The notes under the pieces: model-generated
The model's database searches: none
What the model was told of the DNA's origin: nothing
The model's input: only the letters and a program-made list of their open reading frames with translations
Shown: positions 7,358 to 53,430 of the stretch, piece by piece
Numbering within the stretch: the stretch's first letter is position 1
Layout of the letters: the number at the start of each line of letters is the position of its first letter
Made by a program: the position numbers and the translations under genes
Origin: Halichondria panicea
Lineage: Eukaryota > Porifera > Demospongiae > Suberitida > Halichondriidae
Length of the DNA: 64,000 nucleotides
Assembly (NCBI RefSeq): GCF_963675165.1
Contig: NC_087382.1
Coordinates: 496,001-560,000 of the forward strand
Direction: 5' to 3'

Positions 7358-7674
7358 CTGTACAGTAGGAGAGAGGAAGCCATTGAATGACATGAAAACA
7401 CCACTCACACCAACACAGTGTAATGCACACACCAAACAGACACACTCAACCAGAATAACAGAAGCAGCTCGGAATTGTCACCATTGCTTACAAGACTCTA
7501 TTGCAGTAGGCACTCACTCATCTCATGCTATAATGTACTGTACAACACACTGTACACTAACACAGGCTCAGAATTGTCATCTTCCTATGCAGTCTAGAGT
7601 CACTCATTGAGTTGCCTGCCCTTCTCATACCTATACGACGTTGGCTTCCTCAGTGCTTGCACCAGTAGACTGTA
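7358..7674. other. Spacer without recognised gene
   Basis: An open frame covers most of 7281-7610 on the + strand but has no domain, and a near copy exists at 52216-52515. I treat it as non-coding spacer carried along by duplication. Confidence 0.4.
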
Positions 7675-7738
7675 CATGGTCTCTCTCCATGGTCCTGGCT
7701 ATGTCACTGTGGCCCACAATAGGACTGGACAAAGCTTC
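7675..7738 (-). pseudogene. Reversed Death-domain fragment (unit 3)
   Basis: The - strand reads EALSSPIVGHSDIARTMERD, followed by VQSTGASTEEANVV and a stop. It is the closest of the reversed fragments to a Death helix 6. An in-frame stop also lies immediately before EALSS. Confidence 0.6.
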
Positions 7739-29744: not shown

Positions 29745-31227
29745 ATGGCTGCAATGTTTTCTCTTCAAGATGACGCCAACTTGAGGGAGTTTGTGCTGGA
29801 GAATGTGGAGCACTTTGGAGATGAGAGAGTTCTAGGAACTGGCTCTTATGGCTCTGTTCAAGAGGTCAGTCACTGCATGCTCTGTTTCTGTGCACTGTCT
29901 CTAGTGTATCTGCTAGCTATTCAAGTGTGACTGCCTCCATGCACAGGTGATGATCAATGGTGAGGTGTATGCAGCCAAGAAGATCCACGAGGTTCTCCTG
30001 GAGACGGACGAGCGTGGTGGAGTGGCCAACATAGCTGGGAACTACCACCGAGAGTGTCGACTCATGGCTCGCATCCGTCACCCCAACATCACCCAGTTCA
30101 TTGGGCTGTGTTTCGTGACTGGCTCTCGACTGCCCCTCCTGGTCATGGAGAGGCTGGACTCAAGTCTGGACGATCTCCTAGAGTCCACCCCCAACATCCC
30201 CCTCTCTGTCTCCCAGTACATTCTGGTCTGTGTGGCTCGAGGGCTGCTCCACCTGCATCGTGAGTCCGTGGTCCATCGTGACCTCACTGCCAGGAACGTC
30301 CTGCTGACAGCATCTCTGAGAGCCAAGATCACTGACTTTGGTAACTCTCGTATCGTGAATCTGGAGCCTGGTCGACTGGCCAGGACTCTGACGAGGTTTC
30401 CTGGGACACTGGTGTACATGCCACCCGAGGCCCTCTCTGACAGAGGCCACAGTGTGTACGGACCCAGTCTGGACGTCTTCTCTTTCGGAGTGCTGCAATT
30501 ATTTGCACTCACACAAGTATGTTATTCGTTGGTAAATTCCTATAATTATTGATGACCTTCACTCCTAATGACATATTTATACACTTAATCAGTACTGTGG
30601 TATATATGTAGATTCCTCTAAAATGGTTGACCTTTTACCTGCAGCAAATGCATTGTGTACCAGAGGAGATAACGATAGGCGCGGTGCAGCTCAGGCAATT
30701 AGCCTTTGATTGAGCAATAATTATCCGCCCACGCCGTATGTTTTTGCTGAGAGTAATCAAAGGCTAATTACTTGAGCTGCACCGCGCCTGTCGTTACCTC
30801 CTCTGATTGTGTACTAATGGAATGATTGTGACACATGTACACTTCATACATACGTAAATGCAATCATGACACTCAGTATTGACATGCTCTTCCACTCCAG
30901 GTGTTTCCAGGAGATCTCCTTGTCCCCACGTACAGCGACCCCAACAACCCAGACCACCTCCTGGCTCGCTCAGAGTTTGAGCGTCGAGGTCCCTACACGG
31001 CTCTTCTTGAGAGGAGTCTGGCGGGTGGACGTGAGCACCCTCTGTTTGGTCTGGTGAGGGAGTGTTTGACCAACACCCCAGAGAGAAGACCGACCACCGC
31101 TGACCTCCTCTCGTCTCTGGAGGAGGTGGGGAGGGAGATGGACGGAGGACTGTTCCAGCTGGACATTGCACGAGTGAAGACTGCCAGGACCCTCAGGGCA
31201 AAGGAGAAGAGGATAGAGGTTCTACAG
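29745..31227 (+). CDS. Gene 5 exons 1-3: complete kinase domain
   Basis: Glycine loop GTGSYGSVQE ends exon 1. Exon 2 has VYAAKKIHE, HRDLTARNVLL, DFGNSRIV and SLDVFSFGVL; exon 3 has VFPGDLLVPTYSDPNNPDHL and ECLTNTPERRPTTADLL. Compared with gene 4, one Lys changes to Arg in the catalytic loop (TAKN to TARN), which is also common in active kinases. Confidence 0.85.
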
Positions 31228-33193
31228 GTGAGTCCAGTCCAGTGAGCTAGTGGGTGCAAGGGTCTGACACTGCATGCTGTACTCTGTTCTCAGAGAGAGG
31301 TGGTCGAGAAGGACAGGATACTGGAGAGGAAAGATGAGCAACTTGTACAGAAAGACGATCAACTGGATCAGAAAAACGCACTTCTGGTACAAAAAGATGA
31401 GCAAGTAGCAGACAAAGATACTCAACTTGCTAGACAGCAACAGGTCAGTAGAATTTTTACTTCACTTTTTACACGCAATTTCGTATTATGCTAATCATGC
31501 AAGATAATTTCTCTTCATGCAGATATTGAATAGTGTCCATGCTACTGCTACCACCAAAGATGGTATGATTGCTGACAAGGACAGACAACTCAGCGAACAA
31601 GAGTCAAGGATCACTGATCTCATTTCCCAGAGAGAGGCTGCTCTAGTTGAGAGGGACGCTCTCTTACAGGTATTATAATAGTCACCAAATGCACACACTC
31701 TTGTACTCTAGTAATGTACATGAGTGCAGAATTGTCCACTGATACAATAATATTCACGTCTGTGTTCTAATTAGAAGATTTCCACCAACGTTCCCCTGTA
31801 CAGGTACACGGGGTACAGATGGAACACAATACTGAGCTGGTCAGGAGAGACGCCATCATTCAACAGCAGAGACAGGTGAGATGAATCCATATTATTGCAG
31901 AGCTATAGTAGAAGCTTTGATGTTATAGTTTGTGCATTCTAGTGGGCTGGTGGTCTTCACCTCTTAAGCTTCAGTATAGCGGGTAATTTTTGGGGGGCAA
32001 AATATTCGTGGCTCAGCCATTTTGAGACATTTCGTAGGTAATACTTTCATGGTTGCTGCTTGTACTGCAAGTAAAGGTAGGCAAGGTCGCTTCATTCGTA
32101 CAATATTCGTGGTCAGACCTTCAATCAGAAAACCACGAATATTTTGCCCCACGAAATTACCCTCCATACAATAATTAGAAAAAGTGATTTAGTGTGCATA
32201 CAATTATTGCTACAAGTAACACTCGCTTGTTAGTAGACACTATCCTAATTACACTCATTCATTATTCAGGGTCCCCCTCCCAGAGAGTTGAGACCTCCAC
32301 TCAGTCTGAAATGGAGAAGAGGAAAAGACATGCCAATCAAGATGGGCTACACAGTGCAGAGTGTTGTTATCGGTGACACGGCGTATGTTGGTGGAGGCAG
32401 TGCAGGCGATGATTGTAACGTGTGTACAGTGATGAAGCTCGAGCAAGATCAATGGACCAAACTACCAGAGTACACTGCCAAGTGGTTTGGTATGACATCA
32501 CTCGCTAATCGACTAGTGCTAGTGGGAGGACGTGATCCAAGAAACAACACACCCAGCAATCAACTTTCAGTGCTCGAGTCAGGGGAATGGACTCACCCGT
32601 ACCCACCAATGAACATTGCTCGTCAATCCTCAACAGCTGTCTCCTTCAACAACCACATAATTGTAGCTGGTGGGCGTGATGGTGATGGTCGTATCTCCTC
32701 TGTGGAGGTGTTGGACGTGGCATCAAGAAGATGGTACATTGCTCAGTCACTACCTAACTCACGATCAGAACTGAAATCAACTCTCATAGGAAACACCCTC
32801 TACCTAATGGGAGGGTGGGATCACACTGGGCCAACCAAGACAGTGCACCACGTCGACCTCAATGAACTCATCATTACAAAGGCCCTTTCCAACCTGGACA
32901 CACCCACTCTCTGGCAGACCTTACAAGAAGTACCACTCGGGTTGTCAGCTCCTCTCAGTATTGGGAGGTCACTATTAGCCGTTGGTGGAGCGAATGACAG
33001 AGTCAACCCAAGTTCATCGATCCACCTCTACCAGCCTGACACCAGGAGGTGGTTGAAAGTAGGAGACCTGCCTACTGTACGATACTGCTGCACATGCTCA
33101 GTACTTCCTAGTGGAGAGGTTATTGTAGCCGGAGGACAGATAGTAAATAAGATTAAAATCCAAACTGTGGATTTCTTCTCTATAAGTTCTTAG
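29745..33193 (+). CDS. Array gene 5: N-terminal kinase - coiled coil - kelch
   Basis: Seven phase-0 exons: 29745-29864, 29947-30516, 30901-31227, 31294-31443, 31523-31669, 31804-31875 and 32270-33193. The protein is 769 residues. The kinase (about 24-320) is nearly that of gene 4, with HRDLTARN, DFG and MPPEA intact. The coiled-coil exons and introns instead match gene 3, and its kelch resembles genes 2 and 3 more than gene 4. Gene 5 is therefore a mosaic, or the donor of the block now in gene 3. It is the most compact complete gene here, with short introns. Confidence 0.85.
30661..30805 (+). mobile_element. Mutator-like MITE, 9-bp target duplication
   Basis: Ends CAGAGGAGATAACG and CGTTACCTCCTCTG, with a perfect direct repeat ATTGTGTAC at 30652-30660 and 30806-30814. 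The interior folds on itself (GGCGCGGTGCAGCTCAGGCA against its near complement). It lies in intron 2 of gene 5. Confidence 0.8.
31294..31875 (+). CDS. Gene 5 exons 4-6: coiled-coil block
   Basis: Exons 31294-31443, 31523-31669 and 31804-31875. The first is almost base-identical to gene 3's, as is the intron after it up to the piggyBac site. The block reads REVVEKDRILERKDEQLVQK, DRQLSEQESRITDL and TELVRRDAIIQQQRQ. Confidence 0.8.
31975..32167 (+). mobile_element. Degenerate MITE in gene 5 last intron
   Basis: Arms AGCGGGTAATTTTTGGGG and CCCCACGAAATTACCCTCC. Same site and family as 14733-14937 in gene 3. Confidence 0.5.
32270..33193 (+). CDS. Gene 5 exon 7: six-bladed kelch propeller
   Basis: 307 residues with all six double-glycine motifs. 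Loop features: AGDDCNVC in blade 1, MGGWDHTGP in blade 4 and an extra residue in LIITKALSNL. Its 3' flank is the same as in genes 2, 3 and 7. Confidence 0.85.
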   Translation, partial: GPPPRELRPPLSLKWRRGKDMPIKMGYTVQSVVIGDTAYVGGGSAGDDCNVCTVMKLEQDQWTKLPEYTAKWFGMTSLANRLVLVGGRDPRNNTPSNQLSVLESGEWTHPYPPMNIARQSSTAVSFNNHIIVAGGRDGDGRISSVEVLDVASRRWYIAQSLPNSRSELKSTLIGNTLYLMGGWDHTGPTKTVHHVDLNELIITKALSNLDTPTLWQTLQEVPLGLSAPLSIGRSLLAVGGANDRVNPSSSIHLYQPDTRRWLKVGDLPTVRYCCTCSVLPSGEVIVAGGQIVNKIKIQTVDFFSISS

Positions 33194-34027: not shown

Positions 34028-34310
34028 GTGTGTGTGTGGGGGGGGGGTCGTACATGATTGTACATTGCACACCTTCAAATACATTACAGGGAAACACACA
34101 TCACAAGCTATAGCTCACGCTGTATGATGACAAAATTTAATGTATTTTCCAACTCATCTCATGCTATAATGTACTGTACAACACACTGTACACTAACACA
34201 GGCTCAGAATTGTCATCTTCCTATGCAGTCTAGAGTCACTCATTGAGTTGCCTCCCATTCTCATACCTATACGACGTTGGCTTCCTCAGTGCTTGCACCA
34301 GTAGACTGTA

Positions 34311-34375
34311 CATGGTCTCTCTCCATGGTCCTGGCTATGTCACTGTGGCCCACAATAGGACTGGACAAAGCTTCC
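34311..34375 (-). pseudogene. Reversed Death-domain fragment (unit 6)
   Basis: The - strand reads EALSSPIVGHSDIARTMERD, nearly the same as at 7675. Confidence 0.55.
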
Positions 34376-37810: not shown

Positions 37811-38126
37811 ATGTCTGACTATCTCACAATAGCAGATCTAAACAAAGTGTACCTCGCTACGTTTGAAGCTCGAATTAAGTGGCGAAACATCTTGTTGATG
37901 CTCGAAGTCTCTGCAGCTACAATCAGAAGTATCAGCAGAGAATGGAACAATGATCCTGATGACTGCTATCGTGAGGGGCTGTTGGAATGGCTGAATGAAG
38001 GAGAGAGAAGCTGGCAATCTATGGTCAAAGCATTGTCCAGTCCTACTGTGGGCCACGTTCACATAGCCAGGACCATCGAGAGAGATCATCTACAGTCTAG
38101 CAATCCTACTGATGTGAAGTCAGAGG
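37811..38126 (+). CDS. Gene 6 exon: Death domain
   Basis: 105 residues, almost those of gene 3 (SISREW for SISKEW) with the core KWR present. The ATG at 37811 is chosen over an upstream in-frame ATG at 37706 because the latter lies before the UTR acceptor CTACAG. Confidence 0.8.
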
Positions 38127-41100
38127 GTAAGTACCAACTAATGCAACCTATCAATAATATTCCCTACCCCCTTTCACCCAGAGGAGGTACGACACGAGTA
38201 CCTCGATTTAGCAATTACGCCCACGCTCAATGTTATTGCAGAGGCAATTCCTCGTGTCGTACCTCCTCTGCCACTCACCTAGGGCAATTAATCTCACAAG
38301 CCACACCACTTCACACGAAAAAGGATCTGGCAACAGTGTGCATGTGGAGTTGTCCCCTGCACCAGGACCCTGGCGCCGCCAAATCAGAGTGTAGAATTAG
38401 TAAAGCATCATTAACCCGCTCGTACCACACCCAATGATGTCATGATTTAGCATGCTGATACGAAACTAACCACGCCCACTCTATAGAGTGGACGTGGCAG
38501 AGTTACCACTGAAACAACCCCACAAGAAATGTGGCCTGCGAGACTATGGGGCGATATGGGGGTAACGTAGGGGAAGTGCCAACTGAACTCATTCCTGACG
38601 CTGTGTACTTTCCCCTATGTTACCCCTGTCCCCCATGTTGAGTAGGCCGCAATTTTTTGTCAACAATTACCACTAGGCCCTGGCAAATTATGCCGGCATA
38701 ATTGGGGCATAATAGGTTAGGTCATTATGCTGGCATAATTGGAGCACAATAGGGTTAAAATTTTGAATTTGGTCAGTTTGGTGCAAATGCAACGGTCCTC
38801 TGCTGCTGCTGAACGTGTTTTTTCTCTTTTAAATGCCTCTTACATCTAGAAGAATCTTCAGTTTCAGTTATGTTACAAATGAAATTATCTCTTGTTGTAT
38901 TGAAATGTACAATACAACAAGAGTTGTTATTACTGCTGAAAAAAGATTATTTATGACGTCAATATGGGGCATATGGGTTCTTTCGACGAGCATAATAGGC
39001 TGAATTTGGGGCACTGCTCAAAAGCATAACAGGCAGAAAAAGGAGCATAATTTGCCAGGGCCTAATTACCACCATGAAAACTTGTTTTGTCTAACACAAT
39101 AGCCGCCCTCGGTTCTTGTATTAAACAGCAGTCGAGGGCGGCTACAACCACGAATACCCACTATCAGGAGTGCATGAATAGGAGTATCCATGACACCCAC
39201 GCACATTCCACTCCATGCTTTCTCAGGGTGACATCACAAACACTTAGTAGTTGTGTAAACTGTGGTTTAGAGCCTAACCCAGAGGAGGTACGACACGGTC
39301 ACATGACCAGCCAAAAGGATTATGAATCTCATTAACTTGTTCATGAATATCATTCAAGACTGTACTTTGATAGTGGATTTGGTTTGGCGTGTATCTTTCA
39401 AGAAATACACTTGACGTTTCTAAGATGAGGATGGTTCATTGCTGGGCTTATACTGATGTGAAATAGCTTTTCAACCAGTTTCAACCACCACTTAGATTTT
39501 GAGATATTATTGTTTTTAGTGTAATTCTGTTTTAGAGTGTTTAATAAGTATTCTGTGCCTGCATTCAGGATAGGATCACTGCCAACATCTGAGCCTTGGT
39601 GGTTACAACAAATCTAATCTCTACTTGTAAAACTCTAGCTACTAGCCAGCAACAAATTCACTGAGTTTTATGCTCTAAACTTGTCTCTTTATGGCGCTTA
39701 CTTGCCACCAGTTGAATGTCGTCATTGGAATGCATTTTTAACGACTTCTTTGTCTTTCTTGCCTTCAATCAAGAAATAGCAGCCACGTGAGCTTAACGTG
39801 TCGTACCTCCTCTGAGCCTAACCCTAGGTTTGATTAGCACAAACCACAATACAAACAAGTGTCTTGCGCATTTTACAGAACTACCACGAGTAGAATATTA
39901 TTAACACCACCAAGCTAGTACTATACCAAGAAGAAGCCCATAGATTTGTTGTAGTCTCTACTAAAAAGCAATCCAGTTTATGTATACCATTGTGTTGTGT
40001 GACATTATGATCCACTATTGATGATCAATTCCCCTACCAATCTAAATACTCATTTCATTGATAGGTGCATAAGCACTATTCATATCTAATGCATAGAGCG
40101 GTTTGTTAGTTTACATCATTCCTCACTCACTCCCCAACCCACACACATTGTTCTGTACAGTTGAGCAGAAGATCAATGAAGATTTGACCATTTTCCTAGA
40201 TGAGCCACTCGGTAAAGGTGCATTTGGAGCAGTTTTCAAAGGCAGCTACAAGGGCGAGACTTGTGCAGTCAAAGTGCTGCTTCACGATGCTATGGAGATG
40301 CAGGCAAGTATTCCAGTCGGAAAAAGTGAAGAAGCTAGCAATGCAATTGATCGTGAGAGTGATTTTCTAAAATCGTTTCAGCACCCAAATGTTGTTCAGT
40401 TTTTGTCGACTGCCAAGCACCCCAAATCAGGTGGTACAATCCTCGTTGTTGAGCTGATGAATTGCAATCTGAGATCCTATTTCTCCGGTCTTAATGAAGA
40501 GTCACTCACTAGCGAATGTGAAATTAGCCTCTCCAAAGACATGGCTTGCGGTCTCGCCTACATTCATAGCAAGCAGATTATCCACCGTGACCTCAGTGGC
40601 GATAACGTCTTGCTGAAGCTCACACTGCCAGTGCCTGTTGCAAAGATTTCCGACTTTGGCATGTCACGGCTTTACGATTCCTCCAAGCTCAGCTCCACCC
40701 TCACAGCCATTTGTCACCGTAGAGGGTATCTACCTCCCGAGGCCTATCGATTGGAAGAGGAGAGTTATGATAGTAGCCTGGATGTGTTTTCCTATGGAGC
40801 GATTTTGACGCAGATTGTTTGCAAGTTAAAGAATATCAAATCAGCCAAGGATCGATCATTCCACGTTTCCCAGATCCCTCACACACACAAGTTGAGGAAG
40901 CTTATCGACAGTTGTTTGCAAGAAGACATGAGGAAGAGACCATCTGCCAGGGACATCTGTGAGTCTATTAGATAGTGTGTGATAATTTTACGCTTCTGAA
41001 AAATATGTTGATTTTCCTATTTAACGTTTAATTCTTAAATTAAGATGCTTCACTGACAAGAGACTCGGACTCAGTAGAGGCAGCAAAGAGGAACACTCTA

Positions 41101-44100
41101 CCAGTCAAGAAGGTGCATACATTCTCGGGTGCATTAAGGACTGGACCTTCAATTATTGCTGAATTTGCAAATTATAATCCCGCCCACACAGTTTCCATGG
41201 TTACTCCCACGCGTTCATTACTTCAACGTACTGCTCCCTTTTCATTTTGCAGTAATTCAGCGAAGTGACTTATTCAGCGTTCAAAACACCCTCTAGTGAT
41301 GCTTGTGAGGCAATACGTGACTTCCATAAGCCTTCCTTAGCTGATTTATCCTTGCATGTACTTGTCAACAAATTGTTGACCGTATCTCTGGGAAGCCTAT
41401 CCAAGATGAGGCTGCTACATCAAACAACTTCTGTTGTTTCTCCATTGCAAAGACCAGGAGGGCTAAGCGCTATAGCTAGAGTGAGTTGTTAGCTTATAGG
41501 TATAATGAGCAGCAGCAATAGCTAGTAGACTTCGTGTTAAAACACTGATTTTTCAATAGAAGAGTGAAATAGTGCTTCGACAAAACGGTGGGCGGGGGTT
41601 CATTTTATTATTTTCCTAGATAATTAGGGAAGCCAGTGTTTCATTTCATCATAAAAGTTTTACACATGCAGACTGATATATACACAGTAAACAGCAGCAG
41701 GTTTAAGTGCCTCTTATAATTATGTTGGTCCCAGTCCTTAATGCACCTGAGTTGCCACAACATCAAAAGTACTGTACCTATAGGTTTTGCGATTTTATTG
41801 TTGCGAATTGATCAACCCTCACAAAATTCGCATTATGTTTGATGCTCGCAAAACAAACGGTATAATTATACATCATTTTGAGTGTGCCTATAATTATGTA
41901 ATAGTCCTATTCATTTAAGAGCCTAGAACTTTGATTGCTCTTCCAACGCCTATGCTAATTATGCCTCGAGGCGTAGCCGCACGAGGGATACGGTAAAGCT
42001 GACTGTGTGTGTGTCTGTCTGTGTGTCTGTGTGTCTGTTCCAGCTGTAACTGCTCAACGGTTGCAATGCGACGAAAGCTACTGGCTTCTAGCCACGTTCT
42101 CTTGGATTTTGATTCGTGGATTAGCAAACTAAAGCTTCTTTCTCGAGTTATGGCTAGTTTGACTCACATTGAAGGCTGTTGCAGTCTCTTCAGAATCTTT
42201 CATAGCATCATCTGTCTGCACAAACTTTCTATTCAACATATGAGTTAGCCTTGCACTAAAGCGCTAGCTTTTTGTTAGCTACAATACTCAGAAAATATCT
42301 GTTAAAACAGCTAGCTAGCAGTATAGCCATTTGTGAAATTGATCTCTGGACACACCCTTTAATTATTCCTGTGGATGTAATGCGCATGCGCGCTCATTCC
42401 CCATGTGTGAGAAAATAATATCAGATCCAGATCCTCCTGGCAGAATCATCTTTGTCTTGAGGGCCTGGTAAGCCACAAAACACTACCATATAAAAATATA
42501 GATAACAATATGCATGTACACAGGTTTTTTCTTCTTAGATATTATATACACTGAACTACAGATCCTGGAAGAATCAATTTTCTTCTTTCTTGAGGTCCTG
42601 GTAAGCCACATAATACAATAAATAACAACAATAGATGCATGTAAATAAGTCTTTTCTTCTCAGTGACTTTATATAGATAAGCTAACTTTAATATAAAATT
42701 CATTATAGAAACTAATATAACACTCTAATACTTTTGAGCGAAAGCAAAAATATGGCGAGAGGCATTAGCACAGCGCCAGCTTGAACACTAGTTACTTTTG
42801 CAGTAACATTTTGCTGAGCTGGCACATTGAAGTCAATATAAAACCTAAACCCTGTACAGGCACACAGGGAACAGATTCAGCACAAAGATGCTGAGCTGGT
42901 CAGGAGAGACGCCATCATTCAACAGCAGAGACAGGTGAGACGAAATGCACTATTACATGTATAATTTGCCCTTGTTTTTTTTATCGAGCAACTGCTACTA
43001 TTTCACAATAAAAAAATAGTTGAACTGTGTGTGTGTGTGTTCCAGTGCTTAACAGTTGCAATGCGGCGAAAACTAACTGTTTCTATAGCCACGTTCTCTT
43101 GTATTTTGATTCGTGGATTTGCAAATTAAAAGCTTCTTTCGAGTTGGGCCTGGTATCGACTGCTTGCGCATGCGCTAACCATTAGCCATGCAGATACCGG
43201 CTAACGCAGGATAACAACGTGTATGCTCAGTAAAACAATGACGTCACAACGAACAGAAGTGGATTGAAGGAAAGTTCGATTGAAGGTTTCAGCCCGTCTG
43301 ATAGCATTCTGATAGCTATAGCCTGCTATATGCTAACAAAAGACTGCAAAGCCTTGCAACAGTGTGGATGACAATCGTGTGGACGGAGTGAAAGCTGACA
43401 AGAGCCTACTACAATATGGACAGGCCATGCCCATCTAAAACTAACTTTGGTGAAAGTCTACTATACTACTGCTATATACTGACTCTATCAGCTGTACATC
43501 TCTGTCTCTAGCTAGCTATATAGCTATATAGCTCTGCATGTGTATGTCTTTGTCAGGATTTGATAAACAGAAATTTTACGGGAAAAAATAGCCAATAATT
43601 TTGCGCATGCGCAAGCAGTCAGTAGCAGGCCTTCTCTTCAGGGGAGGCCAGTGAAGGAGGCTAGCTATATAGCTCTGTGTATGTCTTTGTCAGAACTTTT
43701 TCTCTGATAAATTCAGTATTACAGGAAATGTTACGGGGAAAACTAGCCATGCGCATGCAAGCAGTCAGTAGCAGACCTTCTCTTCAGGGGAGGGCAGTGA
43801 AGGAGGCTAATGCGCATTGAGCTGTTCTTTTACGTGGTATTTTAAAAATGCTGCCTCGAGGTACGCTTCGTTCAGTAATGTCGAAAAAAGTGACCATGCT
43901 TCAAGATCTTCGTACTACAACCTCAGTGAGGTTCTAGAGCAGCTATAGACAGTGAGAACATCGATGCTTATGGCCTTGTTGAGTGAGAGGACAGTGACTG
44001 GGATCATAGCTAGATAAGAAGCTACCTCAAGCTAGAAAATATAGAGCATGAAGAGCCTGAGGAAGAAGCTCTTGCGATGGACCAAGTTCTTGGATCTGGT

Positions 44101-47100
44101 AAGTCTAGAGTAGTCTTGATAGCTTCAGTATAACTGTATTTAGGCTAGTTAGTATAGCAGTGGACATCATGAACCACCATTGAACTTGTAAATCTGTGTG
44201 TAGGTGATTTCCCGGGAAAAGGGCGTTTGCTAATACGACCTCGCAGAGAAGTTTCTGCAGATCCTGATTGAACCATGTCACCATGAGAACATTGAGAGCA
44301 CTTGTTAATGCAGATTTTTCTCTATTTTTAGGGTACTAATTTTGGCGAATTTAAAGTTTGGAGTCTGATACAGATGAAAAAAGGGCTAACTTGCATAGCA
44401 TAATAATTATTATCAAAAGTACATTTTCATGAAAGAAAAAGTTTTTATTTTTGTTAATGAGTTCATTAAATGCGTTTTATTATTAGTGGATACTTAATTA
44501 AGGAACAAGGGGTAGCACTATTAGTAACTATCGGATCCTGGCCTAGATCTTTCACTATAATTATTGTACTACGTACGTAGCTATTATATAGCTATAGCTT
44601 AAGTTTTCAATGAAAGCACCACAGGTGCTAATGCCTCGGTGGAGGTGTCAAAGCTACATAACATATAAAGCTACTATAGCTATAAGCAATAGCATGCACG
44701 CATTTTTATCATGATTGCATTAATAAAATTAATTTTGCTGCATGCAGAATCACAGAGGAACTCAAAGAGTGCGTAATGATCGGTCATGATTGTTGTTGTA
44801 AACGATTCATGCCAAAAGTCTAAGTCTAAAATGAATGGTTGCATCCAGAGAAGGTACGACATCCGCGTGTCAAAGGAAGTTTTTTAAACTCACATTCCTT
44901 AGGTCAAAGTTCAATTGCGTATTACCTGCCAAACTTAAACATAAGCACTGGGCAATTTTTAGCTGCCAAGAGTCTGATTCGTGCACTGTTTGATCTAGGT
45001 TATAGCTATCAACCATCGTTTCAGCTTCAGAATCTTCAGGAGGGAGGCGGCCTGGAGTTGCTGTGAGTATCACTTTGTTTGATGTGCTATTGAACTTTGA
45101 CCAGGATATAATAAGGAATGTGGGTCTTTAAGACACAGATGTCTTACCTCCTCTGGGTTGCATCAGCAGAGCCTTGCAACTCTCTTTTAGCTTGCAGCTA
45201 TGGTACCAGTAGCTAGTGTTCTAGTGCAGAGCTAACTGTACTACGTATAGACTCCATGGACAAGCTTTTCTACGCACTCTTCTGAAAAGACTGCCATGGC
45301 ATTCCAAGTAAGCAAAACTCGAGAACGAAGCATTATTTTGCAAATCCACGAATTAAAATCCAACTAGAAGCCCATTACAGACCTGCCAACCTCTAATACT
45401 AAATTTATTTGGTAAAATCAAAGATTGTGCTTGAAATTATATGTTTCTCTAAATAACTCTTCCAATATAAAACAAAATAGTCTGGTAGAGCTGACATCAT
45501 TGTTTATTTTGTGGGTTTTGTGCACATCCTGCCACATGGCTCATTGGATTTTTCAATATTACTTCGGTTTGCACCTTTAATTGGAATGTTTACATGTGCA
45601 GTATTTAGAAATCAAACCGTGGCAAAAGTGTTTTGTGCTTGAAATTAGACCCCTTAGCCGGGATACCGGGAAGAGAGACAATTTTGAGGGATATTCCCGG
45701 TGGCAAGTATGCTATCAGGAGTGTATGAAGAGGAGTATCCAACTGTAGCAGTTGTAGTGTAAACCAGGTTTCGGTATGAGTATGTCATACTACGTCACTA
45801 TCAGACCGCATCTTAAGTGGGTGCGTAGGTGTATAGTGGTTAATTAATTTAAAATGAGCATACGTCTGCTGTCAGAGGAGGTTGACACGATCACGTGCAC
45901 CACTTTTTTTGCTGAGCTGGCACAAAAATTGACAATGAGTTCTATGTAAACTTCTAGCTGATGTTGCGCGGTCATTAGAGACTGAAGGCAAACTTTATGT
46001 GCCTCTCTGGCTTCTTTTGATATAAAACTTTCATTAACCAACCCGATCCCCTCTATTCTGGCGAGTTATCAGTGCATACAGTGTTTACTAGATTCTTGCC
46101 AGCCAGTACAATGCAAGCTATAGTCTAGCTAATCTTGGTCCAGCCAGACAACAGACACAGCTAGTCCGGTGTTACAAGTCAGCAAAGCAAGAGTATCCAT
46201 AACTTTTTTATTACAGTTATTTGGTATCTATGGTAACGTGAGCAGAGACCTTAGGAATGTCACATGATTGATGACGCATGGCCAACTTCCTCTGATCTGC
46301 TGTGGTTTGTACCTCCAGCCCCTAATGCTATAGAAACTCTTACCTTCACTTCTTATCCTAGTCTACACAGACACAACACACACACACAGACACACAAACA
46401 CACGTATACCTCTCTTGCGCATGCGCACCGAGGCATAATTAAATAATAAAAGCACTGCGGGTGCTGATGCCTCGGTGAGGTGTGCCAAAGCTACATAACA
46501 AAGCTACTATACATACATTATAATTATCATGATGAACATTTTTGCATTAATTAATTTTACTGCATGCAGGCAGGATCCAGAATCACAGGGAAAACTCGAA
46601 GAGTGGGTAATAATCGACCACGATTGTTATTAAAAACGATCGATGCCAAAAGGTAAAGTTCAAGTGTCTAAAATTGATGGCTGCATCAACAAAGCCTTGT
46701 AGCTCTCTTCTCACTCTTGCAGCTACCAATAGCTAGCGTTCTAGTGCAGAGCTAACTGCTAAGTAGAGTAGCAACACTCGGTGAACAAGTTTTGCTGAGC
46801 ACTCTTGAAAAGGCTGCAATGGCATTCCAAGTAAGCAAAACTAGGCATAACTCGAGAACAAAGCATTATTTTGCAAATCCCTGAATTAAAATCCAAGAAA
46901 ACATAACTAGAAGCCTATAAAAACTCTTACTTGCACTTCATTAATCCTTGAGCAGCTGTAGCAGTCTACACAGACAGACAGACAGACAGACATGCAGACA
47001 CACAAACACCGTATACCTCGCTGCGCATGCACACCGAGGTATAATTATGCTGACATAGCAATAATTGCCTTCGTGTGTTTTGGCAAACAGCTACACACAC

Positions 47101-50100
47101 CACGTGGATAAATGCGCATGCTTAATAGTATTGCCAATATCCATATAGCGGGTATATTTCGAAGGTATAAATTTTCGCGGATTTAATTTTCGTGGAATAA
47201 CAGCCTTTTTGCAGCATGCATGCATGCGATATTAAATTTGCAATTAATTAGGCCCTGATAAAATTAATTATGCTTTTTTCACCCATTATTCTATTCTTTA
47301 ATTCTTGAAAAATGTGCCTATTATTCTAATCCGATTATTCTCTGATTATTCTCATAAAAATGTATCCTAAAAAATGTGACATATAATCAGTAGACTCTCG
47401 TTAATCCGGTCACCCTTGGGACCATGCAGCTTGGCCGGAATAGCGAGGTGGCTGTATCTCAGGAAATAGCCGCGGCTTAAAAACGACCCTACCTCGAATC
47501 TAATGACTAATTTTGCGGTTCTTGTCTCGAGGATAATGTTATCTATTTAAGTGTAATCCAATTTTATTTGCTAAACCACGGTAAACGGAATAGCGAGTGG
47601 CCGTACTTCAGGGTGAGTTTTGTGCAGTAAACATATAGCTATATAGCATTCCGTGCCAAGCCAAATGGCCGGTATATCGAGGTGGCCGTACTTCAGAGAG
47701 CCGGAATAGCGAGAGTCTACTGTAGACATAAACACAACACACGACTGACATATGACATATTAATTAATATATCATGGTTCTCAGTGTTATCTTGCTGACT
47801 TGAACCAGGAGCCCATAAAGAGAAGGAGCGGCTAACTACGGGGATCACATCTCGTAATTGGTTATGACCGCATTTCCATATATGCAGGGTCACTAAGTGG
47901 TTGAATCCCTACACGTGTTATACGCAATGCAGGGATGCGGTTTGCAAGCACTTAGTCGCTTCCATACAAGGAAGTGCGATTTCACCGGCAATTACAAGAT
48001 GTGATCCCCGAGTGTACGTTGAAGTTGGGCGCTCCTTCTCTTTATGGGCTCCTGCTTGAACTGATCCACTAGAACATCATTATGCAAAACTTAATGTAAT
48101 GATCTTTACCAAAAATGAACATTGATGCCTATTATTCTTTAGTGCTGATCACATGATCTCCAGCCAATCAGCTTATCTGAAGGCAGTCAGGTAACCATGG
48201 ATTAAATAACTTAATCCACACTTAAGTGTGCTTTAAGTTGGTTAAGTGTGCTTTAAGTAGGTTTGTTAATGCACACTTTTTATCAAACAACCATAATACA
48301 AGCAGATTGAATCTGAATGTCATCATAATTATAATAATAATACAAGCAGATTGAATACGTACACAGCAAAGCTGAAAAGTATTAGAAAGTTGAATGTTAT
48401 CGTTTCAACTTGTTTCATGTGTAGTAAGTGTACCGAATTGCTGACTTGACCATAGCATCGCTTTTTCATCTGGAGAAATAGACTCAGCTTGCTTCGAAGA
48501 TGTACGTACCTGTACCTAAGCCAGATCCATATAATCGTTTCATCAAAGGTGCTTCGAATATCATAGCGTTCCAAAAGAGCAAACCAGATACTCATTGCCA
48601 TATAGTTTGCGCACAAAGTTTCCCATCCAGTAAGCCAGATCAGCTGGAGGCATATCCAGTAGTGGGATCGGGACTGCACTGTTGGTCAGCAGGAGAAATA
48701 AGTCGAGAACATGCCCAGTCAGTCCAGATAGCTTTAGATAGTATCTCCTTCTCCTTTGCATCAGTTACTGGATCTACAAACCTACTAAAACTTGCTATTA
48801 CGCCTAGCTAGCTAGCTAGCCACCAGCAACTGATTTAAAATGTAGCTAGATCTAGCTGCCACGAGGCTAGAGCTCACGTGACAGCACTAAATCCTTTAGA
48901 ACATACCTAGCCAAGTCACGTGTTTTAATGCTGGTGCACTCGGATGGCCTCTCGGTTACGTAATGCACTCGGCTGCACCTCGAGCACCACGTTAACCTCG
49001 AGGCCATCCTCGGCACGCAGATTAAAACACTTAATCTTGGCTAGGTGTGTTCTAAATAATACTTAGACACCTATTATATGCTAAAATTATTCCGAGCATA
49101 ATTTATCAGGGCCTATGCTTAATCCGTGAAAACCACAAACATTTATACCCTCGAAATATACCCGCTATACGGTACTTGAACTGACAATAAACCGGATAAA
49201 AGCTTGGAAATAAAGCTATTTGTGCGGAATTGCGATGTCAGACTGTTATTTTGTGCACTGAATGCATACAGACATGCACGTAGCCACACATGCAAGCGCA
49301 CACTGCCTGTGATTTGCTTCATTATCGTCGTAATTATTATATCCGTTTACAATGTCTATTTGTATTATTTGTTGTTTAATGTTTAATTCAATTTATTCGT
49401 AAATATACAAAGAAACTTATTCCCTCCTCTATAACACTCTAAATCAAAAGCGCAGCTTGTTAATAGACACTATCCTCGTTCATTATTCAGGGTCCTCCTC
49501 TCAGAGAGTTGAGACCTCCACTCACTCTGAAAAGAGGAAAAGACATGCCAATCGAGATGGGCACTTCGGTACAGAATGGTGACACAGTGTATGTCGGTGG
49601 AGATAATGCAGACAATGATCGTGATGTTGCAGCTACGGATGCCATAAGCACTGATCAGAACAGAGGACCCATCAACAATGACGACAAATACGAGGAAATT
49701 CGAAAAGCAGCAGCCTCTCTGATGCCAAAATCTATGCGAAAAATCGATGCAGTGCTGACTGAGGTAGAATCAACAACTCCAGCAAAATCAATTTCCATTC
49801 TTTTGACAGGAAAAACTGGTGTTGGAAAATCCACTCTAGCATATGGAATCTTGGGATTGAAAGTTGACGATGATCGTGCAGCACAAGAGGGTGGAAGCAT
49901 TAAGGCGAGGTGTACTACTGAAGTAAGAATGCATCAACAGAACAAAAATGGAGTCTTGATAACTGTTTGGGACAGCTCTGGGCTACAAGATGGTACCGAG
50001 GACCAAGATCAATATCTTCAGCAGATCAAGCTCAAATGCTCACAACTTGATCTGACGATGTATTGTATAAAAATGATTCAGACGAGGTTTGTTCGAGGCC

Positions 50101-50756
50101 ATGACAATCCAGACGTGGTAGCAATGGAAAAGTTCACAAAAGCATTCGGCTACGAATTTTGGAAAAGTACCATCATTGTCCTAACGTTTGCCAACATATT
50201 GACAGCAGTCAATCTGGAATGGGAGGATTTATCTAAGCTAAAAAAAGTCAAGGCATTTGAAGCGGAAGTACAAGAGTGGAAAGATAAGATCAGATTAATT
50301 TTGATTGATGATATCAAAGTACCACAGGAAATTGTGCACGGCATTAGGATAGTTCCAGCAGGGCACGCTAGGAGGCCAAATTTACCAGGAATTGAATACT
50401 GGCTTACGCATCTCTGGTTTCAATGCGTTTGGACAATGCCAACCAAGGGGGCACGAATCGCTATGGTGAAGATTAACGAGAAGCGAATGAAAAATGAAGA
50501 CGATGTAAGAGAAGATGGTGTAACAAGATGGACATCAGCAGATCAACAGCCACTTGTAGTGGTGGGTGATAGTAGTGCAATAAAAGTTGTAGCAATCAGT
50601 GGAACAAGTGGAGGTGCAGCTGGTGCTACGGTTGGTGCTTTGATTGGGCTGATTGGCGGTCCGCCAGGTGCTGCTCTCGGTGCAACAATTGGTGGTTTAA
50701 TTGGAGCGACGGTAGGTGGAGGTGCAGGAGGAATATACAAACACGTTACAAGCTGA
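37811..50756 (+). CDS. Array gene 6: Death - kinase - coiled coil - GTPase chimera
   Basis: Five exons fit in frame: 37811-38126 (Death), 40161-40958 (kinase), 41045-41112 (linker), 42860-42934 (one coiled-coil exon) and 49491-50756. The protein is about 840 residues: Death 1-105, kinase about 117-370, linker 372-394, coiled coil 395-419, kelch-derived start 420-459, GTP-binding domain about 480-760 and glycine-rich tail 789-833. Kinase motifs GKGAFGAV, CAVKVLL, HRDLSGDN and DFG are intact. The last intron is 6.5 kb of transposons, so joining of the final exon is predicted, not shown. The two first coiled-coil exons are missing; all are phase 0, so the frame holds. A GTPase in place of the propeller makes this the odd member of the array. 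Confidence 0.7.
38179..38270 (+). mobile_element. Mutator-like MITE, 92 bp
   Basis: Ends CAGAGGAGGTACGACACGAG and complement, almost all arm. Flanks CCTTTCACC and CCACTCACC match at 7 of 9 bases, an aged 9-bp duplication. Confidence 0.7.
38546..38640 (+). repeat. Inverted repeat (hairpin)
   Basis: GGGGGTAACGTAGGGGAAGT and, about 50 bases on, ACTTTCCCCTATGTTACCCC. Possibly another small MITE; no target duplication was identified. Confidence 0.45.
38674..39064 (+). mobile_element. hAT-like MITE, 8-bp target duplication
   Basis: Ends TAGGCCCTGGCAAATTATG and complement; direct repeat ATTACCAC at 38666-38673 and 39065-39072. The interior repeats GGCATAATTGGGGCATAATAGG motifs. Confidence 0.8.
39280..39814 (+). 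mobile_element. Mutator-like MITE, 535 bp, 9-bp target duplication
   Basis: Ends CAGAGGAGGTACGACACG and CGTGTCGTACCTCCTCTG; direct repeat AGCCTAACC at 39271-39279 and 39815-39823. It is the longest family member, with an interior unlike the others. Confidence 0.8.
40161..40958 (+). CDS. Gene 6 exon: complete TKL-like kinase domain
   Basis: Acceptor TTCTGTACAG, phase 1 at both ends, donor ATCT|GTGAGT. Motifs: GKGAFGAVFKG, CAVKVLL, RESDFLK, HRDLSGDNVLL, DFGMSRL, GYLPPEA and SLDVFSYGAIL. Ser replaces the Cys of genes 3 and 7 in the catalytic loop. Confidence 0.85.
41124..41751 (+). mobile_element. Inverted-repeat element, 628 bp
   Basis: Ends CTCGGGTGCATTAAGGACTG and CTCAGGTGCATTAAGGACTG (outside in). 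The open frame at 41265-41492 inside has no recognised domain. It lies in the intron after the gene 6 linker exon, where coiled-coil exons would be expected. Confidence 0.6.
41950..42480 (+). mobile_element. Repeat element with GAGGCGTAGCCGC end, opposite copy
   Basis: Reverse-orientation counterpart of 20830-21620, from GCCTCGAGGCGTAGCCGC to the GGTAAGCCACAAAAC end, without the minisatellite. A doubled right end follows at 42540-42610. Confidence 0.5.
42860..42934 (+). CDS. Gene 6 exon: single remaining coiled-coil exon
   Basis: 25 codons, AHREQIQHKDAELVRRDAII and QQQRQ, acceptor CCTGTACAG, donor GTGAGA. It matches gene 4's exon 6 (AHREQIEHKDAE) rather than the VHGVQMEHNTE form of genes 3 and 5. 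Confidence 0.7.
43545..43808 (+). repeat. Tandem duplication, about 130 bp x 2
   Basis: Two units each carrying GTATGTCTTTGTCAG, ACGGG(G)AAAA, GCATGCGCAAGCAGTCAGTA and CTTCTCTTCAGGGGAGG. The first keeps the palindrome TGCGCATGCGCA. Confidence 0.6.
43810..44400 (+). mobile_element. piggyBac-like relic, related to 13345-14239
   Basis: Diverged copy: GCGCATTGAGCTGTTCTTT, CTCAGTGAGGTTCTAGAGCA, ATCGATGCTTATGGCCTTGT and TTTCTGCAGATCCTGATTGA all align with the gene 3 element. A right end near GGGCTAACTTGCATA is decayed. The left end runs into the tandem repeat. Confidence 0.6.
44846..45155 (+). mobile_element. Mutator-like MITE, 310 bp, 9-bp target duplication
   Basis: Ends CAGAGAAGGTACGACATC and GATGTCTTACCTCCTCTG; direct repeat GGTTGCATC at 44837-44845 and 45156-45164. 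The open frames inside have no known domain. Confidence 0.8.
45180..47050. other. Intron region of diverged repeats
   Basis: Part of the 6.5-kb last intron of gene 6. Fragments of the GAGGCGTAGCCGC-type element occur at 45180-45390 and 46690-47050, each with AGCAAAACTCGAGAAC-like sequence. A lone Mutator-like end CAGAGGAGGTTGACACG is near 45875. No exon was found. Confidence 0.4.
47388..47722 (+). mobile_element. MITE with pogo/Tigger-like ends
   Basis: Ends CAGTAGACTCTCGTTAATCC and CAGTAGACTCTCGCTATTCC (outside in). CAGTAGACTCTCG resembles pogo-type Tc1/mariner ends. The interior repeats GGCCGGAATAGCGAGGTGGC-like units. Confidence 0.55.
47806..48054 (+). mobile_element. Inverted-repeat element, 249 bp, 7-bp target duplication
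   Basis: Ends CAGGAGCCCATAAAGAGAAG and complement; direct repeat CTTGAAC at 47799-47805 and 48055-48061. Probably hAT-like. Confidence 0.75.
48141..49070 (+). mobile_element. 0.95-kb repeat, second copy
   Basis: Matches 23654-24612 closely, including the inner foldback at about 48895-49056, but lacks the 31-base tandem doubling. It sits inside the nested stack. Confidence 0.55.
49491..50756 (+). CDS. Gene 6 exon: kelch start fused to AIG1-like GTPase with glycine-rich tail
   Basis: The acceptor CATTATTCAG and first codons GPPLRELRPPLTLKRGKDMP then DTVYVGGDNADNDRD are the start of a kelch exon. At about 49625 the frame passes without a stop into a different protein. It has P-loop GKTGVGKST (residues 526-534 of the predicted protein), SIKARCTTEV as a possible switch I, DxxG in WDSSG (579-583) and TFAN in the G4 position, weaker than the usual TKxD. 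The pattern is closest to AIG1/GIMAP-type GTPases. The tail (789-833) alternates Gly/Ala with Ile/Leu/Val in GxxxG spacing, as in membrane-inserting glycine zippers. The GTPase part is one exon; kelch 3' flank resumes near 51150. Confidence 0.8.
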   Translation, partial: GPPLRELRPPLTLKRGKDMPIEMGTSVQNGDTVYVGGDNADNDRDVAATDAISTDQNRGPINNDDKYEEIRKAAASLMPKSMRKIDAVLTEVESTTPAKSISILLTGKTGVGKSTLAYGILGLKVDDDRAAQEGGSIKARCTTEVRMHQQNKNGVLITVWDSSGLQDGTEDQDQYLQQIKLKCSQLDLTMYCIKMIQTRFVRGHDNPDVVAMEKFTKAFGYEFWKSTIIVLTFANILTAVNLEWEDLSKLKKVKAFEAEVQEWKDKIRLILIDDIKVPQEIVHGIRIVPAGHARRPNLPGIEYWLTHLWFQCVWTMPTKGARIAMVKINEKRMKNEDDVREDGVTRWTSADQQPLVVVGDSSAIKVVAISGTSGGAAGATVGALIGLIGGPPGAALGATIGGLIGATVGGGAGGIYKHVTS

Positions 50757-51150
50757 TATATATTTTGTAAGATTACTAAGTGTTGTTATTATTATGTGTA
50801 TGTGTGTGCACTTGACTAATTGTACATTGTTTACTTAGTTAATTTGTACTGTAGCTATGGTTTCTGTTATAGGTATGTTAATTACTTCCTGTGGAGCAGA
50901 GCCTCCTTTTGTGTTAACAATAGATTCTTTGTTGTAAAGAGGCCCTGCGCGTTTCTCTTGTTTTTGGTGCATGTATGATCTCTGTTTTGTCAGTTGTTAC
51001 TTTTGTCTATCTTGTTTAATGTTAAACCCTTGTCAAATCTTGAGCTGACTCCGCCGCTTATAGCTAGTTCTAGCACTCAACTCTGCCAACACTAAGGCCA
51101 TATATAGGGCCAGGCAAAGTAGATTAGCATCAAATGCATGGTTTTTGAAG
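50757..51150. other. 3' flank brought in with the GTPase
   Basis: No gene. This stretch has no counterpart after the kelch exons, while sequence from about 51165 (CATGTTGTGAGAAATG...) matches the 3' flank of gene 1 at 690. It is probably the GTPase's own 3' UTR and flank. Confidence 0.45.
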
Positions 51151-51353
51151 TTGATGAGGTGATTATCATTATTTCATGTTGTGAGAAATGTGCTTTTCTA
51201 TCGTATAAGATTACATCAGAGATTGAGAATTTCGTTAATGTTTGTTTGGATTGTAAAATTAAAAGAGAAAAATAAAGTAAAAACAATGGCAAGAGTTCGT
51301 ACACATAATGTTTGATTTTACATATTACATTGTCGGTACAGAAATAGACAAGT

Positions 51354-52267
51354 CTCATAACAAGTTCAGGTCCTTGGTTGGGGTCTTGTCCGAGGGTAGG
51401 GTGGACGCCTTCTCCCAGAATCCAAAGTCTATCTCCTCTTTCGAGTCAGACAGAGAGGGGTGGGGCTCGGGAACTGAGGGGTTAAAGAGTGACATGGTCA
51501 TAGTCATACTGAGTGGAAGTTTGAGGGCTTAGGAAGTAAGTGACAAGAAAATTGAATGAAAACTGGTTAAATGCAAAGTGGTTCAACAGTGATAAAAGGG
51601 ACACTATACACACATGTACTGGTGTACAATAATGTGTAGAAGTATCAGTAGTTTGACACTCTTCTCTTCTTATGCACTCTTGATTGAAGCATACCTTGTA
51701 TACAAGTGCATGTACATACAGACTAGTAAGCATGCTAGGTTCCCATTCTTTGTACTGTACATTCAATAGTACACAGTCGACTCATTGCACTGCATAACTA
51801 CACATTATACACACGTACCTTGTTCTTGATAAAGGTTCCTCAGTAGCCCCTGTCCAAGGACCTATGTCTTCAGACTGTCCCTCACTGCTTAGGCTGCTCA
51901 CCAGACTGGAGGTGGGCTGCATGTAAGGGCTGGGTGTCAGGGGAGTTTTTAGTCTCTGATGACAGACCCTTTTCCATACTGCTGAGGTCTGTTAGCATCT
52001 GAATGGCCAGTTTACTTGAGGCCCCTCTCTTAAAAGCATAGTAGGCCTAAAGGTGTGTGTGTGGGGGGGGGGGGGGGCGTACATGATTGTACATTGCACA
52101 CCTTCAAATACATTACAGGGAAACACACATCATGTGCTGAATAGGACACACTATAGCTGACCTTGAATAACTTTAAGGGACTCCACAAAGTTGACACAAA
52201 TGCATTTTCCAGCTAATGTGCTCTGTACCTGTACCTCCATTCTCAGTGCCTCTTCTTGTCTCCTCAA
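51354..52267 (-). pseudogene. Unrecognised convergent gene, relics (unit 6 copy)
   Basis: Exons 52235-52267 (LRRQEEALRME), 51819-52046 (ending EEPSSRTR) and the terminal 51354-51473 (SEEEIDFGFW). The 230-base exon is two bases short here (within the AAGCATAG region), and the 80-base exon is absent. It is convergent with gene 6, as the other copies are with their neighbours. Confidence 0.45.
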
Positions 52268-52577
52268 CTGTAGGAGAGAGGAAGCCATTGAATGACATGA
52301 AAACACCACTCACACCAACACAGTGTAATGCACAAACCAAACAGACATACTCAACCAGAATAACAGAAGCAGCTCGGAATTGTCACCATTGCATACAAGA
52401 CTCCATTGCAGTAGGCACTCACTCATCTCATGCTATAATGTACTGTACAACACACTGTACACTAACACAGGCTCAGAATTGTCATCTTCCTATGCAGTCT
52501 AGAGTCACTCATTGAGTTGCCTGCCCTTCTCATACCTATACGACGTTGGCTTCCTCAGTGCTTGCACCAGTAGACTG

Positions 52578-52642
52578 TACATGGTCTCTCTCCATGGTCC
52601 TGGCTATGTCACTGTGGCCCACAATAGGACTGGACAGAGCTT
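52578..52642 (-). pseudogene. Reversed Death-domain fragment (unit 7)
   Basis: Nearly identical to 7675-7738: EALSSPIVGHSDIARTMERD with one base change near the start. Confidence 0.55.
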
Positions 52643-52734
52643 CCTACAAATCCAGACAGTGAATGTTTGGCCACTTGTTCCATGGTCCAACAGTCACTTC
52701 TTGTTTCAACTCCTAAAATTAACATGTGCATATT

Positions 52735-53259: not shown

Positions 53260-53291
53260 ATAATTATCACACACTATAAAATAGACTCACA

Positions 53292-53430
53292 GATGTCCCT
53301 GGCAGATGGTCTCCTCCTCATGTCTTCTTGCAAACAACTGTCAATAAGCTTCCTCCACCTGTGTGTGTGAGGGATCTGGGCAACATGTAATGATGGATCC
53401 TTGGCTGATTTGATGATCTCCAACAGGTGA
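53292..53430 (-). pseudogene. Reversed kinase C-lobe fragment (unit 7)
   Basis: The - strand matches the end of the Death-gene kinase exon from the ETIKSAKD region through HRLRKLIDSCLQEDM to SARDI, with small deletions. Same site as the fragments at 8148 and 34791. Confidence 0.6.

What the first reader, a model, noticed from the sequence alone, without database searches (positions are those of the whole stretch)
49491..50756. Kelch exon replaced in frame by a GTPase in gene 6
The last exon keeps the kelch acceptor and about 40 kelch codons (to VYVGGDNADNDRD) and then becomes a P-loop GTPase with GKTGVGKST and WDSSG. The kelch 3' flank returns about 400 bases after its stop. A 1.5-kb substitution thus turned a predicted propeller kinase into a Death-kinase-GTPase, an architecture I do not know as described.
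Basis: partly seen in the sequence, partly recalled or inferred. Interest (0 to 1): 0.9.

Follow-up and report, generated by a model that had tools for sequence, protein, structure and literature searches.

The report
Sponge kinase gene with swapped-in GTPase
In a sponge's tandem array of kinase genes, a last exon that normally encodes a propeller domain has been replaced in frame by a GTPase copied from another gene, and two copies of the swapped exon now stand behind two different kinases.

Summary
The window is from the sponge Halichondria panicea. Exon 49491-50756 keeps the kelch splice acceptor and 44 kelch codons. At base 49622 it switches, with about 3 bp of microhomology, to an AIG1/Toc-type GTPase that is 91% identical to an intronless solo GTPase gene 6.7 Mb away, without that gene's start codon. 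A 311-bp solo LTR (target duplication CTAAG) later landed in the 3' UTR. The kelch 3' flank then returns.

First, the exon exists twice: a 10-kb duplicate lies about 97 kb downstream, behind a different kinase without a Death-like exon, and NCBI models that copy as a kinase-GTPase protein (LOC135337596). Second, the database proteins I mapped onto the window splice around its own GTPase exon, and the searches found no protein joining it to a kinase.

So "kinase-GTPase fusion" is supported for the sister copy. "Death-kinase-GTPase" for gene 6 is possible (all frames fit, 840 aa) but unsupported: one splice donor is weakened, and the GTPase shows no visible constraint. Kinase-AIG1 and Death-AIG1 fusions are already reported in a snail. 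This is a new variant of a known kind, with an unusually readable record of its making.

The parts
37811..38126 (+). Exon 1 of gene 6: Death-like N-terminal domain, ends in phase 1
   Evidence: Frame and GTAAGT donor. PDB profile search: the 11 best of 16 matches are FADD, E 0.008-0.29. Foldseek ranks 1-22 of 38 are entries with a Death domain, best E 0.06, none at E 0.001 or less, on a weak model of pLDDT 59. Pfam finds no Death domain.
40161..40958 (+). Exon 2 of gene 6: kinase domain, type A
   Evidence: Pkinase E 7.5e-40; lysine, HRD and DFG motifs readable in the translation (motif names recalled)
41045..41112 (+). Exon 3 of gene 6, converts phase 1 to phase 0; weakened donor GTGCAT
42860..42934 (+). 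Exon 4: 25-aa charged exon of coiled-coil look, phase 0-0; database proteins P0037 and P0087 use it behind the upstream kinase B
49491..49622 (+). Kelch stub: 44 codons of the old propeller exon behind its acceptor, with two in-frame deletions (6 and 9 nt) not seen in the 21 other kelch exons lined up
   Evidence: predicted disordered, pLDDT 35-52 over residues 1-60
49623..50756 (+). Swapped-in AIG1/Toc-type GTPase and stop codon; ends in a glycine-zipper tail
50757..50780 (+). Remnant of the donor's 3' UTR, ending in the 5' copy of the target duplication CTAAG
   Evidence: homology to L013 ends at 50777; CTAAG on both sides of the repeat
50781..51091 (.). Solo LTR (TG...CA, 311 bp), a dispersed repeat inserted after the fusion and present in both copies
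   Evidence: 18 other places match over 280 or more of the 661 query bases at 81-96% (7 start at query base 42, 12 end at 352, i.e. 50781 and 51091); 40 of 201 candidates were scored; target duplication in both copies
51169..52132 (+). Returned kelch-gene 3' flank, weak from 51169, strong from 51351
41959..52132 (+). Segment duplicated at C6:634890-645977, where it sits behind a kinase-B gene
29745..31669 (+). Kinase-B exons that database proteins P0037, P0060 and P0087 splice across cassettes, bypassing the GTPase exon
44204..44230 (+). Short alternative terminal exon (VISREKGVC) used by database protein P0087
60230..61144 (+). Kelch exon of the next unit, spliced to by P0006, P0037 and P0060

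Best explanation
A terminal-exon swap. In a tandem array of kinase genes whose last exon encodes a kelch propeller, illegitimate recombination joined kelch codon 44 to codon 20 of a copied intronless AIG1/Toc-type GTPase. This removed the GTPase's start and the rest of the propeller but kept the kelch acceptor and reading frame (shown by comparison). A retroelement then left a solo LTR in the 3' UTR, before the duplication (shown by comparison). A 10-kb segment with exon 4 and the swapped exon was duplicated, so that one copy stands behind kinase A and the other behind kinase B (shown; which is older is not). Because the kinase-B, coiled-coil and terminal exons are all phase 0-0, the swapped exon is readable behind either kinase. 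Behind kinase B it is most likely expressed as kinase - coiled coil - GTPase - glycine-zipper tail (NCBI model; transcript support inferred). The likely action is inferred only: nucleotide-dependent pairing of the G domains, as in Toc34/GIMAP, clusters the kinases or targets them to a membrane, in place of ligand or substrate binding by the propeller. The window's own copy is probably used little or not at all.
For: Sharp DNA boundaries and donor. Donor start codon 57 bp upstream of the junction, absent from the fusion. Microhomology. Solo LTR with target duplication in both copies. Duplicate behind kinase B, complete 874-aa model with all seven exons of length divisible by three. P0001 matches that model except for skipping the 25-aa exon, and bears an isoform number, which in this pipeline usually reflects RNA evidence (the last point recalled). 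Two stub deletions, both multiples of three, and a third variant P0131 (seen as protein only) with the same junction and a different stub deletion. GTPase core folded, stub disordered. Toc34 nearest fold.
Against: No RNA was seen directly. Between the two copies the GTPase differs at 24 of 1,134 bases; 21 of the 24 are nonsynonymous by my count (19 amino-acid changes), dN/dS about 2 by two methods, a third failed: no sign of purifying selection since the duplication. The 5' intron differs by only 0.34-0.50%, while LTR and 3' flank differ by 1.3-1.8%. The window copy departs at 2 of 40 columns that are 90% or more conserved in a 97-sequence alignment (N118Y, P163S), copy 2 at 1 (G110C). The tail's best hydropathy window, 1.36, is low for a membrane helix. 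No assay supports the inferred function.
Confidence: 0.62

Rival explanations
1. The window's copy is a dead or skipped exon: transcription runs through it, but splicing goes from exon 4 to the next kelch exon or to the short exon at 44204, so gene 6 never makes a GTPase protein. Only the sister copy is used. (This concerns the window copy and can hold together with the best explanation.)
For: P0037, P0060 and P0087 bypass it. No protein found joins it to a kinase: one search covered lengths of about 462-1470 aa (7,999 candidates scored), about 232-737 aa (7,998 scored, 120 of 131 hits listed). Weak exon-3 donor. Departures at N118 and P163.
Against: Full open frame, intact acceptor like kelch acceptors, no stop among 24 differences (expected without constraint in 35-39% of simulations, so weak). 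Models in near-identical tandem repeats may be misassigned.
Confidence: 0.5
2. The GTPase is translated alone, from the stub ATG (MPIEM...), from an intronic promoter or an internal start.
For: ORF callers begin P0125, P0126 and P0131 at that ATG. The stub ATG is in frame. The donor gene is a stand-alone GTPase.
Against: The donor's start codon and upstream sequence were not carried over. A 6-nt in-frame deletion lies upstream of the stub ATG, where frame would not matter (one event, about 1 in 3 by chance). NCBI models it behind a kinase in copy 2.
Confidence: 0.15
3. The GTPase arrived as a reverse-transcribed cDNA (retrocopy) rather than by DNA-level recombination.
For: Insert and donor are both intronless, and homology ends about 21 bp after the stop codon.
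Against: No poly-A tract at 50757-50780, and the only target duplication noticed flanks the LTR, not the GTPase segment. Kelch sequence was lost at the junction, so it is a replacement rather than an insertion. An intronless donor cannot discriminate.
Confidence: 0.2
4. Assembly artefact (misjoined repeats).
For: The region is a mosaic of repeats of 90-99.7% identity.
Against: The junction occurs in two loci with different neighbours and in ORFs on a contig of another length (631,535 bases; its sample is unknown). A diverged variant P0131 shares it.
Confidence: 0.03

Closest known systems
AIG1/GIMAP proteins with an N-terminal kinase or death domain (Biomphalaria glabrata; kinase also salmon, fungi per PMC7053062)
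   Same: Kinase or Death domain N-terminal to an AIG1 GTPase, in an expanded, partly tandem invertebrate family with coiled coils
   Different: Here the GTPase is nearer to Toc34 and arose by replacing a kelch propeller whose first 44 codons remain; independent origin inferred
Roco proteins (LRRK2, DAPK1)
   Same: Kinase and GTPase on one chain; DAPK1 also has a Death domain (recalled)
   Different: GTPase is AIG1/Toc-like; Pfam Roc is below its cut-off (23.1 against 27 bits); no COR domain was listed
Sponge Death-kinase-kelch family (e.g. P0006, P0007; kinase-kelch also in Dysidea avara, P0084)
   Same: Same upstream exons, acceptor and first kelch codons
   Different: Propeller replaced by GTPase
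Toc34/Toc33, IRG (Irga6/IIGP1), GIMAP2 G domains
   Different: Fused to a kinase; tail is a glycine zipper

Membership tests
AIG1 (PF04548) | Profile match above the curated cut-off | tested here: met
   44.9 bits against 27; copy 2 51.7 bits
AIG1 (PF04548) | P-loop and DxxG motifs | tested here: met
   GKTGVGKST and WDSSG present, though S replaces the 90%-conserved P
GIMAP | GIMAP conserved box and IAN motif | not tested
Roco | Roc-COR tandem | tested here: not met
   Roc below cut-off and no COR match listed at E 0.1 (exon) or E 1 (P0001)
Death domain | Death-fold six-helix bundle | tested here: inconclusive
   FADD top by profile at E 0.008 and by Foldseek at E 0.06 on a pLDDT-59 model with five helices; no Pfam Death match
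Protein kinase | Complete kinase domain with catalytic K, D and DFG | tested here: met
   Pkinase 137 bits; motifs readable
Kelch propeller | Several kelch repeats | tested here: not met
   only 44 codons remain; no kelch match in exon 5 at E 0.1
Solo LTR | TG...CA ends, short target duplication, dispersed copies | tested here: met
   a full element with internal region was not looked for

The most novel reading that the evidence does not exclude
The array works as one combinatorial locus. Kinase heads (type A with a Death-like exon, type B without) are spliced over tens of kilobases to a shared pool of terminal exons: kelch propellers, a GTPase, a short stop exon. The GTPase swap is then a new entry in that pool, available to several heads at once. 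Of 11 database proteins that map to this region by exact peptide chains, 5 (P0037, P0060, P0061, P0042, P0087) skip at least one intact kelch exon to use parts of another cassette.
Probability: 0.3. Interest if true: 0.78.

Novelty: new variant of a known kind. Interest (0 to 1): 0.52.

Why it matters
It is a readable record of a domain swap in an animal signalling gene: acceptor and first codons of the old domain kept, new domain in frame, a retroelement scar that orders the events, then a duplicate of the new exon behind a second kinase. If RNA confirms it, it shows how sponge signalling families reach new domain combinations, and it offers a natural comparison (kelch or GTPase on closely related kinases) to test what the C-terminal domain does.

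Tried and rejected
Gene conversion as source of the clustered window-specific changes near the G4 region: a 39-base pattern with up to 3 mismatches found only the window itself (1 place), and among the proteins fetched only P0125, the window's own, holds that peptide; no donor found. Selection: dN/dS of either fusion copy against the solo gene is 0.73-1.00 and between the copies about 2; simulated neutral substitutions give 21 or more nonsynonymous with no stop in 2-5% of runs (uncorrected). This is suggestive of diversification at best, because the region may have an older ancestry than its 5' intron. P0127-P0130 and P0132-P0136 were read for kelch stubs: none shows one. Genome-wide there are two kelch-GTPase junctions among the 99 scored places of 234 candidates. 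Literature: the listings of seven searches showed no title on sponge kinase-kelch arrays or on this fusion; only open-licence PMC papers were searched, and only titles and abstract starts of the listed papers were seen. Of the four papers opened, PMC7053062, PMC8242945 and PMC8195603 were seen in passages (of the first also Discussion part 1) and PMC11378527 in outline only. The fused protein was not folded as a whole: both prediction jobs went to exon 5 and the N-terminal domain, and alignment A3, made for P0001, was not used.

Full report
Where it is. The window is C6:496001-560000 of a 131-Mb genome. A database protein on a contig of the same length names the species Halichondria panicea (P0001), a demosponge. 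The 243 kb that I scanned, window included, holds 24 kelch-type terminal exons, two of which are the fusion exons. They are mixed with two kinds of kinase exon, A (mostly with a Death-like first exon) and B, in a mosaic of duplications of 90-99.7% identity.

The junction. Upstream of 49622 the exon is kelch; downstream it is a GTPase, 91% identical in DNA to the solo gene at C6:7269342 (L013; protein P0127, LOC135337843) and 90% and 81% identical to two pieces of an interrupted neighbour (L014). The kelch side reads GACAATGATCGTGA and the donor side TGATGTTGCAGCT, with about three bases shared; this is judged from relatives, as the exact parent exons are not known. The donor's ATG lies 57 bases before the matching position, so the insert came without a start codon. 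The homology ends about 21 bases after the stop, where a 311-bp repeat begins. Its ends are TG and CA, it is flanked by CTAAG on both sides in both copies, and 18 other long matches lie elsewhere in the genome, with 40 of 201 candidates scored. I read it as a solo LTR that landed after the swap and before the duplication. The old 3' flank returns at 51169 to 51351.

Two copies, two kinases. The segment 537959-548132 recurs at 634890-645977, so a second set of the 25-aa exon and the swapped exon stands behind the kinase-B gene at 630767. Which copy is older I cannot tell. Both genes can be read in full: 840 aa for gene 6 (Death-like, kinase A, coiled coil, GTPase) and 874 aa for the copy (kinase B, coiled coil, GTPase). 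All seven exons of the copy have lengths divisible by three. The swapped exon can therefore follow any phase-0 exon of either gene kind.

What the annotation says. From the 707 hits and I chose 13 proteins and mapped them to the region. Eleven map by exact peptide chains (in P0061 and P0038 one repeated exon is ambiguous); two (P0007, P0020) belong elsewhere. Ten of the eleven are named as NCBI proteins; for P0038 no source is shown. P0001 joins kinase-B exons of the copy to its GTPase exon, skipping the 25-aa exon. P0079 uses that exon and a short stop exon instead. For the window, P0037, P0060 and P0087 start at kinase B (29745) and pass over the GTPase exon or stop before it, ending at 61144 or 44230; P0006 uses the Death-like, kinase-A and kelch exons of the next unit. 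No protein found carries the window's GTPase exon behind a kinase (5 hits among 7,999 scored, only P0001 with a kinase). The stand-alone ORF call P0125 is from another contig. I could not see reads, so all of this is model evidence. In near-identical repeats, short reads can be placed wrongly.

State of the GTPase. AlphaFold2 gives a confident core and a disordered stub. Nearest solved folds are Toc34/33, then the bacterial dynamin LeoA, IRG proteins and GIMAP2; a profile search of PDB sequences also ranks Toc34 first, with IRGB10 and GIMAP4/7 below. The tail has 12 GxxxG pairs but a top hydropathy of only 1.36, below the usual threshold for a membrane helix (threshold recalled). The two copies differ at 24 of 1,134 GTPase bases and at none of 132 stub bases or 75 exon-4 bases. 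Introns differ by 0.34-0.50%, LTR 1.3%, 3' flank 1.8%. The 5' part has therefore a more recent common ancestor or was homogenised. dN/dS is about 2 between copies and 0.73-1.00 against the solo gene. There is no sign of purifying selection on the GTPase; either it is free to drift or it is diversifying. The frame is intact in all versions seen, but these were found as open frames, so that count is biased.

Death domain. Pfam does not see it. A profile of ten sequences finds FADD first at E 0.008, and the weak model's best fold matches are Death-domain entries for 22 ranks, none of them significant at E 0.001. I call it Death-like.

Comparison. PMC7053062 reports AIG1 proteins with N-terminal kinase and with N-terminal death domains in a snail, the kinase form also in salmon and fungi; a search with three such terms found no other paper. 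Roco proteins put kinase and GTPase on one chain but with another GTPase (recalled; PMC6337361 seen in a listing only). The fusion is thus a new variant of a known kind. New here is the mode of origin in plain sight and the swapped exon standing behind two kinases. Related heads carry other ends: C2 domains (P0021) and a dynamin-like GTPase behind the Death-like exon (P0035), so end-swapping may be a habit of this family. A study of this sponge lists kinases, some with DEATH domains, and GTPases among LPS-responsive transcripts (PMC8242945, passages), which fits but does not show an immune role.

Noticed in passing
window 29745-61144: Database proteins P0037 and P0060 (LOC135337594) and P0087 splice across tandem units (kinase B at 29745, exon 4 at 42860, kelch at 60230), skipping an intact local kelch exon at 32270. 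Either cross-cassette alternative splicing or a mapping artefact.
   Followed up: partly
P0035 (LOC135337711, contig of C6's length, place not determined): Death-like first exon of this family (69% identity) followed by a dynamin-type GTPase (Dynamin_N E 2e-8): a second GTPase on this head.
   Followed up: partly
P0021 and P0032 (Halichondria panicea): Kinase-A relatives ending in two C2 domains (P0021) or in a P-loop segment with a Roc match below cut-off (P0032): other replaced ends.
   Followed up: no
window 7661-7738, 34297-34374, 52566-52643 (minus strand): Antisense fragments of the Death-like exon, some with antisense kinase-A fragments nearby (e.g. 53280-53423), recur in many units of the array.
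   Followed up: no
P0183, P0224, P0236: Proteins named as Amphimedon queenslandica, with AIG1 Pfam matches, although PMC7053062 states that AIG genes are lacking, as far as known, in this sponge.
   Followed up: no
C6:504149-519647 and 549323-564871: 15.6-kb duplication at 98.3% identity, mostly inside the window (its second copy ends 4.9 kb beyond it).
   Followed up: no
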